A program made the translations under genes and the position numbers. This document shows positions 1,005 through 4,596 of a DNA stretch of 5,828 nt, one piece after another; the stretch's first letter is position 1; every line of letters starts with the position of its first letter. This DNA is from Lachnoclostridium sp. UBA739 (GTDB taxonomy: Bacteria; Bacillota_A; Clostridia; Lachnospirales; Lachnospiraceae): positions 1 to 5,828 of the forward strand of contig DBKX01000219.1 in assembly GCA_002297865.1 (NCBI GenBank), read 5' to 3'. The notes under the pieces are model-generated. The model did not search any database. It saw only the letters and a list, made by a program, of their open reading frames with translations, and was not told the origin of the DNA.

Positions 1005-1235
1005 ATGGAAAAGGTTCAAGTTTTGCTTAATTCCATTGATAAAGTAAGAGAATTTGTAGATATTGCAAGTTCAGTAGAATACAATTTCGACCTAAAATCT
1101 GGAAGATACATAATCGATGGAAAGTCCATAATGGGTATATTTAGTCTTGATTTGTCGCAGCCACTTGAATTGGTAGGAACCAATGAGAGTGATAGGGCTG
1201 AGATTGTAGATGCTTTTCAAAATTTTATTTATTGA
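1005..1235 (+). CDS. HPr-like (Crh-like) protein lacking the phosphocarrier histidine
   Basis: A 76-residue protein with the HPr fold signature. The segment K40-S41-I42-M43-G44 followed by IFSLDLS corresponds to the regulatory Ser46 region (KSIMGVMSL) of Bacillus HPr, and overall length is close to HPr (about 85-88). An ungapped alignment on this motif puts S10 where catalytic His15 would be and D12 at Arg17. The protein contains no histidine at all, so it cannot carry the PEP-derived phosphate of the PTS. Keeping the Ser46-type site while losing His15 is the pattern of Crh, the catabolite-repression paralogue that works with HPr kinase and CcpA. A similar signalling role is inferred, not shown. 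The ATG at 1005 follows GGAGGTGA (993-1000) with 4 nt to spare. The gene stands alone, divergent from the membrane-protein gene and closed by its own terminator. No convincing promoter could be placed in 860-990. Confidence 0.88.
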   Translation: MEKVQVLLNSIDKVREFVDIASSVEYNFDLKSGRYIIDGKSIMGIFSLDLSQPLELVGTNESDRAEIVDAFQNFIY

Positions 1236-4007: not shown

Positions 4008-4190
4008 ATGATAATATTGTTTTTAATAATCTTTTTGGCAAGCACACATATTTGGGATGACTTGAATACAGAACTGTTTTCAAATACTCATGATATGAAA
4101 TTTTGTCCAAGTTGTGGCACAGAGAATATAATTGTTTGAGATTCAACGGGGAAATGTCACTGTTTTTATTGTCAAGAAGAGCTTTTGTAA
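4008..4190 (+). pseudogene. Small frame in the agrD position: hydrophobic segment plus zinc ribbon split by an in-frame TGA
   Basis: An ATG at 4008 begins directly after the agrB-like stop (TAG 4005-4007) and has GAGG (3996-3999) at 8 nt, inside the end of agrB. It encodes 43 residues to TGA 4137-4139: a hydrophobic start (MIILFLIIFLASTHIW), a polar linker, then KFCPSCGTENIIV. The same frame stays open after the TGA for 16 more codons, DSTGKCHCFYCQEELL, ending at TAA 4188-4190. CPSC (33-36) and CFYC (52-55) on either side of the stop form a typical zinc-ribbon pair, suggesting one original 60-residue product broken by a nonsense change. It does not look like AgrD: there is no amphipathic leader, ring cysteine and acidic recognition tail in the usual order. 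Alternatives are a real 43-residue peptide, or stop read-through. I see no convincing selenocysteine hairpin. Confidence 0.5.
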
Positions 4191-4221
4191 AGAATATTAA
4201 ATAGAAGTTATGAGGAATAAT

Positions 4222-4259
4222 AAGAGATGTAGCATTGGTTTGCTAGGTCTCTTGTTTTT
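4222..4259 (+). terminator. Terminator closing the agrB-like unit
   Basis: AAGAGAT (4222-4228) pairs with GTCTCTT (4247-4253, one T-G wobble). After a G-G mismatch (4229/4246), TAGCA (4230-4234) pairs with TGCTA (4241-4245) around the loop TTGGTT. It is followed by GTTTTT (4254-4259). The T-tract is also the left edge of the next palindrome. Confidence 0.8.
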
Positions 4260-4304
4260 AACTTATAGGAAAGTCCTCTGTGAGTCCTTCCTATAAGTTA
4301 AAAA
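4255..4304. repeat. 17-bp perfect palindromic hairpin with T-run before and A-run after
   Basis: TTTTTAACTTATAGGAA (4255-4271) is the exact reverse complement of TTCCTATAAGTTAAAAA (4288-4304), around a 16-nt loop that contains AGTCC twice (4272-4276, 4283-4287). On either strand the hairpin is preceded by Ts and followed by As, so it is not an intrinsic terminator in either direction. It could be a dispersed hairpin repeat, part of the following RNA's leader, or a protein binding site. The sequence alone does not decide. Confidence 0.75.
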
Positions 4305-4337
4305 AGTCTATAAAAAAGTTAAAAAATTCTCTAAAAA

Positions 4338-4475
4338 ACAGGGACTGGATGCACACGAACGGGTAAGGAAGTTAGGCGCTAAAAAACAGCAACATCCGTT
4401 CGGTGCGGTAAAGTGTGAGTTCCTTTTCGAGAACTTAAGTCGCGAGGGTGTGAGGAACTTATACTTTGTTCTTGT
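4338..4475 (+). ncRNA. Putative structured non-coding RNA with a three-way junction, class unknown
   Basis: Stem P1 joins ACAGGGAC (4338-4345) to GTTCTTGT (4468-4475), 8 bp with two G-U. P2 joins GCAC-A-CGAACGG (4351-4362) to CCGTTCGGTGC (4396-4406), 11 bp with one bulged A. P3 joins AAGTGTGAGTTCC (4411-4423) to GGAACTTATACTT (4454-4466), 13 bp with two G-U, plus A4410-T4467. Junction linkers are TGGAT, about GGT, and none to one base. P2 may carry GTT/AAC and GCT/AGC inner pairs (4371-4380 with 4388-4393). P3 may continue as TTTTCG/CGAGGG (4424-4429 with 4443-4448, three G-T). The wobbles pair only if the + strand is transcribed, since the minus strand would have C-A mismatches. The segment is clearly GC-richer than its flanks and has no coding frame. 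No clear promoter was found directly upstream. It precedes the DUF2156 promoter, so it is more likely a separate RNA than that gene's leader. Confidence 0.65.
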
Positions 4476-4487
4476 ACATTTTAAAGG

Positions 4488-4516
4488 TTGAATATTCTGT
4501 ATGATATTTGTATAAT
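4488..4516 (+). promoter_or_regulatory. Sigma-A type promoter of the DUF2156-GNAT unit
   Basis: TTGAAT (4488-4493) and a perfect TATAAT (4511-4516) are 17 bases apart. Transcription should start near 4523, leaving a leader of about 75 nt before the ATG at 4597. It lies 12 bases after the last paired base of the putative RNA. Confidence 0.8.
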
Positions 4517-4596
4517 ACCAAAGAACATTTACACTAAGAAAAGCTAATATTGGGAAATGAATGGTAGTAAAAAGGACAACAGCGAAAGGACAACGT

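What the first reader, a model, noticed from the sequence alone, without database searches (positions are those of the whole stretch)
4338..4475. Unassigned structured RNA: compact three-way junction with strand-informative G-U pairs
Seen directly: three stems (8, 11 and 13 bp) nest exactly into a P1-P2-P3 junction with linkers of at most five bases, in a locally GC-rich island without coding potential. P1 and P3 each have two G-U pairs that become C-A mismatches on the other strand, so selection seems to act on + strand RNA. The sequence does not match the riboswitch cores I can recall (purine, SAM, lysine, glycine, cobalamin, c-di-GMP, T-box), nor RNase P, SRP or tmRNA cores. It could be a known orphan motif of Firmicutes that I cannot recall, or a new one.
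Basis: partly seen in the sequence, partly recalled or inferred. Interest (0 to 1): 0.75.

Follow-up and report, generated by a model that had tools for sequence, protein, structure and literature searches.

The report
Dispersed hairpin element behind gene terminators
The folded stretch is one copy of a short, scattered DNA element of gut-type bacteria (Lachnospiraceae) that usually sits directly behind the stop signals of genes in many genomes; it looks like a mobile piece of DNA that folds into hairpins, rather than a lone regulatory RNA.

Summary
The fold is real and has no Rfam match at gathering score, but it is not a single-locus RNA. Window 4255-4472 is one copy of a ~220-bp dispersed element: hairpins H1, H2, P2 (with P2a), P3. 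Relatives occur in at least 60 of 397 sampled genomes of one family, with 0-66 matches per genome in 15 searched more deeply. Four copies in one genome are 88-96% identical while their flanks resemble shuffled ones; one site is empty in two congeners. A host intrinsic terminator directly precedes 67 of 104 copies, against 8 of 831 random positions. P2 beyond its foot has almost no wobble pairs (9 G-U, 10 A-C, 718 Watson-Crick), unlike neighbouring terminators (79, 10, 583); its foot pair is mostly U-G. Loop motifs favour the minus strand. Best reading: a non-autonomous mobile DNA repeat, folding as minus-strand single-stranded DNA and landing behind terminators. The enzyme is unknown; Y1 transposase and reverse transcriptase do not track with it.

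The parts
4216..4259 (+). host intrinsic terminator behind the agrB operon: imperfect stem AAGAGA..TAGCA / TGCTA..TCTCTT, then TTTTT; the place behind which the element sits
   Evidence: inverted repeat I2, 79%; neither the simple terminator scan nor my own scoring (which missed H1 here) listed it; same arrangement seen in relatives
4255..4304 (.). H1, long palindrome of the element (17-base arms, perfectly complementary); its 5' end shares the T-run of the terminator
   Evidence: inverted repeat I1, 100%; conserved core ATAGGAA..TTCCTAT in relatives
4295..4336. 21-bp tandem duplication between H1 and H2, not noticed in the other copies printed
   Evidence: direct repeat D1, 90%
4328..4344 (.). 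H2, small hairpin UCUCU-AAAAAAC-AGGGA, degenerate here; GCACCCT-AAAAAAC-AGGGTGC in Anaeromicropila
   Evidence: alignment of copies
4350..4407 (.). P2, conserved hairpin: arms 4350-4363 and 4395-4407, bulged A at 4355, 11-base bulge TAAGGAAGTTA at 4364-4374
   Evidence: columns 2-59; covariation; wobble counts
4375..4393 (.). P2a, apical hairpin of P2 (two mismatches in this copy; tandemly repeated in G280)
4409..4468 (.). P3, terminal hairpin: arms 4409-4423 and 4454-4468, followed by TTCT; alternative inner hairpin 4448-4464
4349..4472 (.). core of the element as modelled (R1/R2)
   Evidence: R1 match 121.7 bits, R2 97.9 bits; both models were built with this copy included
4488..4516 (+). 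promoter-like site TTGAAT-17-TATAAT downstream of the element, possibly for the gene at 4561; it would leave the element in the spacer between terminator and promoter
   Evidence: consensus match only; 6 such sites found, 2.4 expected

Best explanation
The structure is the 3' part of one copy of a short (~220 bp) dispersed, probably non-autonomous mobile DNA element of Lachnospiraceae. Shown: many similar copies at unrelated sites; a strong bias to lie directly behind host intrinsic terminators in one orientation; strongly compensated hairpins; few wobble pairs in most of P2 and in P2a; minus-strand loop motifs; absence from one orthologous site in two congeners. Inferred: the minus strand, single-stranded during replication or transfer, folds into H1-H2-P2-P3 and is the form that an enzyme recognises; insertion is directed to the T-run behind a terminator hairpin; because P3 plus its T-rich tail looks like a terminator, the element recreates its own target, which would explain the tandem copies. 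Not known: the enzyme, and whether the element does anything for the host.
For: Dispersal: 13 matches at E<=1 in G001 with the window copy, 39 with a G001 copy; 21 in G079, own locus included; 50 in G368, own locus and partial matches included; 66, 41, 30, 22 and 18 model matches in G164, G368, G684, G685 and G079; element identity 0.88-0.96 among 4 G001 copies against 0.47-0.59 for flanks and 0.50-0.55 for shuffled flanks. Genome-specific sequence types: a G368 copy finds 50 matches at home and 1 in 7 congeners by blastn although 6 of the 7 carry the family by model. Empty site: the locus around L157 in G164 is 88% and 90% identical downstream in two congeners, which lack the element there. 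Target: terminator score >=18 directly upstream in 67/104 copies, 8/831 at random positions, 6/107 downstream sense, 4/107 downstream antisense; upstream gene running towards the element in 78 of 97. Structure: 304 cells with both sides changed against 79.6 shuffled, 0/500. DNA rather than RNA: P2 without its foot pair WC 1110, G-U 9, A-C 22, one copy per genome 465/5/9, against host terminators 583/79/10. Minus strand: H2 GNA triloops in 45 copies of 21 genomes on minus, 1 copy on plus; tandem G.A in 26 copies of 13 genomes on minus, 0 on plus.
Against: No transposase or recombinase partner was found. Excision, circles or new insertions were not observed. The outermost P2 pair, left out of the wobble counts above, is U-G in 73 and U-A in 22 of 107 copies; with it P2 has G-U 82 and A-C 22, as a + strand RNA would. 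Beyond the bulge P2 shows no strand lean (9 against 10); the A-C excess comes from one pair. P3 has G-U 38 against A-C 16; H1 57 against 77 of 1717 WC. The insertion ends are not base-precise: flanks next to the site have diverged or hold another repeat. 37 of 104 copies, the window's among them, have no terminator by the scoring used, some because H1 was missed or the loop is long, some truly. Most congeners of G368 carry the family, so within a genus it is not simply present or absent.
Confidence: 0.62

Rival explanations
1. A + strand structured regulatory RNA, acting in cis or as a small RNA of about 140 nt.
For: Fold z -3.9; covariation; the foot pair of P2 is U-G or U-A; P3 has more G-U than A-C (38 against 16) and ends in a T-rich tail.
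Against: P1 not conserved; P2 beyond its foot has hardly any wobble while RNA hairpins next door have much; loop motifs on the minus strand; tens of copies in one genome; it lies behind a terminator and, in the window, before a promoter-like site, so a + strand transcript would need read-through.
Confidence: 0.12
2. A minus-strand RNA (a retrotransposed or regulatory RNA) ending at H2 plus its U-run, which reads as an intrinsic terminator on that strand.
For: GNA and GNRA loops and tandem G.A motifs lie on the minus strand; H2 is followed by a T-run on that strand in many copies; some copies are cut short at the H1 side.
Against: Wobble pairs of that strand are rare too (A-C 22 to WC 1110 in P2 without its foot), and the foot pair would be a C-A mismatch; I noticed no constant promoter inside the element but ran no search for one; RVT_1 genes do not track with it: 14/20 against 9/20 genomes, none at E<=1e-5 in G318 and G360.
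Confidence: 0.15
3. A host-useful spacer: a domesticated repeat that insulates genes by adding a second, two-way terminator behind the first.
For: Position and orientation behind terminators; T-rich ends of P3 and of H2 on the minus strand; presence in 6 of 7 congeners of G368.
Against: Copy number swings from 0 to 41 within one genus; often redundant with an existing terminator; in G164 one copy lies in the leader of a gene.
Confidence: 0.1

Closest known systems
REP / BIME palindromes with RAYT (Y1) transposases
   Same: short intergenic hairpins with bulges, high copy number, 3' of genes, single-strand recognition (the last recalled)
   Different: no tie to Y1_Tnp genes (12/20 against 10/20 genomes); P2 starts ATGCGCA, not the GTAG foot that I recall for REPs; composite of four hairpins
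BOX, RUP and SPRITE elements of Streptococcus pneumoniae
   Same: hairpin repeats of Firmicutes, found bunched and inserted into one another; SPRITE is terminator-like (passages of PMC10969869)
   Different: other host group; here the element sits behind host terminators; I did not compare the sequences
MITEs
   Same: short, non-coding, dispersed, multi-copy
   Different: the two ends seen here are not inverted repeats of each other (by eye); no target duplication established; no parent transposon found
Group IIC introns
   Same: insertion just behind intrinsic terminators (recalled)
   Different: no intron match in Rfam in 20 loci, far too short, RT genes do not track
Integron attC sites
   Same: hairpin with extrahelical base and variable tip, recombined as one folded strand (recalled; papers only listed)
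   Different: no attC core sequence as I recall it; integrases and cassettes were not searched for

Membership tests
Rfam RNA families | score at or above gathering threshold | tested here: not met
   0 matches in the window; 20 relatives' loci gave only an FMN riboswitch and a tRNA outside the element
MITE | terminal inverted repeats | tested here: not met
   by eye on the copies printed: left end (ATTTGATAGG-like) and right end (TTTGTTCT-like) are not inverted copies
MITE | target site duplication | tested here: inconclusive
   congeners lack the element at one site but flanks diverge near it
MITE | parent transposon with shared ends | tested here: inconclusive
   14 loci with Y1 or RT genes: clear elements only in L308, two tandem copies about 700 bases from a broken Y1 gene, not at its ends
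REP/BIME with RAYT | bulged palindrome, intergenic, many copies | tested here: met
REP/BIME with RAYT | RAYT (Y1) transposase in the genome | tested here: not met
   no Y1_Tnp match at E<=1e-5 in 8 of 20 genomes with four or more element matches (drafts may miss genes)
Group IIC intron | insertion behind an intrinsic terminator | tested here: met
   67/104 against 8/831
Group IIC intron | intron ribozyme core | tested here: not met
   no Rfam intron match in 20 loci
Integron attC | recombination core sites and integrase | not tested
   core sequence only recalled; integrase not searched
+ strand structured RNA | wobble pairs of the expressed strand tolerated | tested here: inconclusive
   P2 foot pair U-G in 73 of 107; rest of P2 G-U 9, A-C 22, WC 1110; P3 G-U 38, A-C 16, WC 1220; host terminators G-U 79, A-C 10, WC 583
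+ strand structured RNA | transcript | not testable with these tools
   no expression data

The most novel reading that the evidence does not exclude
A class of mobile element of its own: a gene-free DNA unit moved as folded minus-strand single-stranded DNA by an unidentified recombinase that reads terminator hairpins as landing sites, and that rebuilds its own target at its 3' end.
Probability: 0.28. Interest if true: 0.8.

Novelty: new variant of a known kind. Interest (0 to 1): 0.55.

Why it matters
Lachnospiraceae are among the commonest gut bacteria (recalled), and an element with tens of copies per genome at the ends of genes would shape transcription boundaries and genome change there. 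If the targeting is real, it joins the few known cases of insertion aimed at terminators. The comparison with neighbouring terminators suggests a way to tell DNA-level from RNA-level structure in other unexplained motifs, and it warns that covariation alone does not prove an RNA.

Tried and rejected
Rfam at gathering and at E<=10 and on relatives: only matches far below gathering score, the best of them microRNA and leader models on the palindromes (E 0.0076 and 0.00079), taken as chance. blastn against phages and plasmids with the window copy, with one relative against phages and one against plasmids: none. Exact patterns in viral contigs: 111 stretches; compared with the island they align over 18-36 bases, best E 0.025, taken as chance. 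A first terminator detector was wrong because the stem ran on into the T-run; one search replaces it. A first gene-context count was unreliable because it used stop-to-stop frames; one search replaces it. Partner genes, in all 20 genomes with four or more matches and 20 of the 337 without: Y1_Tnp 12/20 against 10/20, RVT_1 14/20 against 9/20. A three-strand switch in P3 (inner copy of the 5' arm pairing with the 3' arm) is seen in the window-like subgroup but not in short-P3 copies, so I did not build on it. Nine paper searches aimed at such an element listed no description of it; a tenth was on attC. Of the papers I saw listings, and passages of PMC2267715 and PMC10969869.

Full report
What was checked first. 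The stretch 4338-4475 folds better than all 200 shuffles (-48.6 against -34.3 +/- 3.7 kcal/mol, z -3.9), lies in a GC-richer island and has no listed ORF of 40 aa or more across it. Rfam 15 gives no match at gathering score in the window, and only matches far below it at E<=10 around the island. The neighbours are agrB (PF04647) upstream and an LPG_synthase_C protein (PF09924) downstream.

It is a repeat. The window's own genome is not held. The nearest named relative found through the downstream protein is Anaeromicropila populeti at 61% identity. In its genome (G001) the window island has 13 matches at E<=1 by blastn, six of them at E<=1.3e-8 and nearly full length (69-73% identity). With a G001 copy as query, G001 gives 39 matches, G280 14, G164 40 (40 of 81 candidates were scored), G267 3, G121 1. 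Among 299 genomes of that family 5, G001 included, have a blastn match at E<=1e-3. Four G001 copies are 88-96% identical in the element, while their flanks are 47-59% identical, like shuffled flanks (50-55%; three further copies were meant to be included but the script did not pick them up).

Anatomy. Reading on the window strand: host terminator with T-run; H1, a long palindrome with core ATAGGAA..TTCCTAT (window 4255-4304); an A-run; H2, a small hairpin (window 4328-4344, degenerate); ATGCGCA and P2, a hairpin with one bulged A and an 11-base bulge around AAGGAA; P2a at its tip, repeated up to four times in G280; P3 with a T-rich tail. Some copies lack the middle of P3 (L131, L133, L134) or H1 or part of it (L126, L130, L135, L156, L159). 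A second subgroup (L180, L184, L192, L193, L249, L254) shows no H1/H2; in most of it P2 follows the terminator T-run directly.

Covariation. On 21 copies aligned without structure, 90% of cells pair, with 56 double changes against 17.9 in shuffles (0/500) and a covariation score of 0.240 against 0.108 (0/500); two other measures do not stand out (pairs with a double change 11 against 9.2, 84/500; further pair types 29 against 28.5, 246/500). On 38 copies aligned with model R1, 92.6% pair, 304 double changes against 79.6 (0/500), 30 of 33 pairs with a double change, slid versions at most 48% paired; that alignment was fitted to the structure and leans towards it.

Distribution. Model R1 finds a match at E<=1e-3 in 60 of 397 genomes of the family, with only 8 candidates scored per genome. 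Model R2 finds one at E<=1e-5 in 4 of 291 genomes of the class, G001 among them, with 12 candidates scored. Both are lower bounds: G058, which one search places in the genus of G368 and which is not among the 60, has one match when 150 candidates are scored. So the family looks concentrated in Lachnospiraceae, but I have not shown that it is confined to them. I examined 107 copies from the window and 43 genomes; these are the stronger hits, the weaker part of the 60 genomes remains unchecked, and L259 looks doubtful (coding-like flank, no H1).

Within genera. With a G368 copy as blastn query, G368 gives 50 matches (own locus and H1-only matches included; 40 of 187 candidates scored), and its 7 congeners give 1 between them. 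With R2 the same genomes give 41 (G368), 30, 22, 15, 12, 2, 1 and 0. So the family is in 6 of 7 congeners, but each has its own sequence type and copy number, as expected if copies spread within a genome. In the genus of G164 the counts are 66, 12 and 8; for G079 and its congener 18 and 0; for G360 and its congener 8 and 2. At the locus of L157 the element is in G164 but not in two congeners that are 88% and 90% identical downstream; one of them holds a different repeat there. The site of L252 in G079 has no element in its congener G683, but the alignment is too diverged for exact ends.

Position. Directly upstream of the element (of H1, or of P2 where no H1 was found) a hairpin with T-run scores >=18 in 67 of 104 copies (3 of 107 dropped for short flanks), against 8 of 831 random positions in the same loci, 6 of 107 downstream in the same sense and 4 of 107 downstream in antisense. 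The random positions are mostly coding, so the downstream counts are the fairer control. The window's own copy scored as negative, because the script missed its H1; its terminator rests on the inverted repeat. With simple gene calls, the upstream gene runs towards the element in 78 of 97 copies (10 of 107 dropped because a gene call covered them). Tandem copies follow the P3 tail of the previous one (L172, L174, L216, L228, L258, L212). In the window the element lies between the terminator behind agrB and a promoter-like TTGAAT-17-TATAAT at 4488-4516.

DNA or RNA, and which strand. In 12 pairs of P2 the 107 copies have 1110 Watson-Crick pairs, 9 G-U and 22 A-C (A-C would be G-U on the other strand); P2a has 507, 6, 4; P3 1220, 38, 16. 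With one copy per genome P2 has 465, 5, 9. These P2 counts leave out its outermost pair, which is U-G in 73 and U-A in 22 copies; with it P2 has 1132, 82, 22. That foot pair and P3 speak for the + strand. The stem beyond the bulged A has 718, 9, 10, no lean either way, and the A-C excess elsewhere comes from one pair. Hairpins of host terminators beside the elements, found with a score blind to G-U against A-C, have 583, 79, 10 (50 terminators). So the neighbours behave like + strand RNA, and most of P2 and P2a do not. H1 has 1717, 57, 77. In the first loop count GNA triloops in H2 were 38 on minus and 0 on plus of 61 hairpins found (46 copies gave none); in P2a 19 and 0, GNRA 8 and 0, of 107. 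A second, laxer count gave H2 45 copies in 21 genomes on minus and 1 (the window's degenerate H2) on plus; P2a 17 copies in 7 genomes on minus and none on plus; tandem G.A in P2 26 copies in 13 genomes on minus and none on plus. That GNA loops and tandem G.A are specially stable in folded strands is recalled knowledge. Loops thus point to the minus strand, and the scarcity of wobble to DNA; both steps are inference, and the foot pair and P3 stand against the first.

Mechanism. Best supported is a mobile, gene-free DNA repeat recognised as folded single-stranded minus-strand DNA and directed to terminators. The enzyme was not found: Y1_Tnp occurs in 12 of 20 carriers and 10 of 20 others, RVT_1 in 14 of 20 and 9 of 20; two carriers with at least 7 matches each, G318 and G360, have neither at E<=1e-5, though they are drafts. 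Of 14 loci fetched around such genes the model finds elements only in L308, two tandem copies about 700 bases from a broken Y1 gene (one further weak blastn match, E 0.001, in L301).

Known or new. Nine searches of the paper library aimed at such an element listed no description. A survey of stem-loop repeat families lists Clostridium perfringens and C. tetani and does not contain the word Lachnospiraceae (passages of PMC2267715). A MITE review treats BOX, RUP and SPRITE as clustered pneumococcal repeats and contains neither Clostridia nor Lachnospiraceae (passages of PMC10969869). I file it as a new variant of the known kind of short palindromic dispersed repeats; it fails tested marks of MITEs, RAYT-REPs, group IIC introns and Rfam families.

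Noticed in passing
window 4008-4190: Behind agrB I saw no agrD-like frame (no Pfam match for the 43-aa frame); instead a small frame with a zinc-ribbon-like CPSCG..CHCFYC pattern is split by an in-frame TGA.
   Followed up: partly
H1 of G001 and G318 copies (L125, L127, L128, L133; L170, L211, L213): The outer bases of the H1 arms differ between otherwise similar copies of one genome but stay largely complementary, as if one arm were copied from the other.
   Followed up: no
L143, L148, L310: Another dispersed palindromic repeat (CATGAGAA..TTCTC type) is nested in or beside copies, and a repeat of that look sits near the orthologous place in G691.
   Followed up: no
L147, L150, L153, L156, L159: P2a is repeated two to four times in tandem in G280 (17-bp unit), like the variable boxB number of BOX elements (recalled).
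   Followed up: no
L156, L159: Copies shortened at the H1 side lie directly behind what looks like a reading frame, whose stop codon may come from the element.
   Followed up: no
window 1005-1235: A 76-aa frame resembles HPr of the PTS weakly, below the Pfam cut-off (20.7 against 23 bits).
   Followed up: no
L238 1261-1397: An FMN riboswitch lies near one copy.
   Followed up: no
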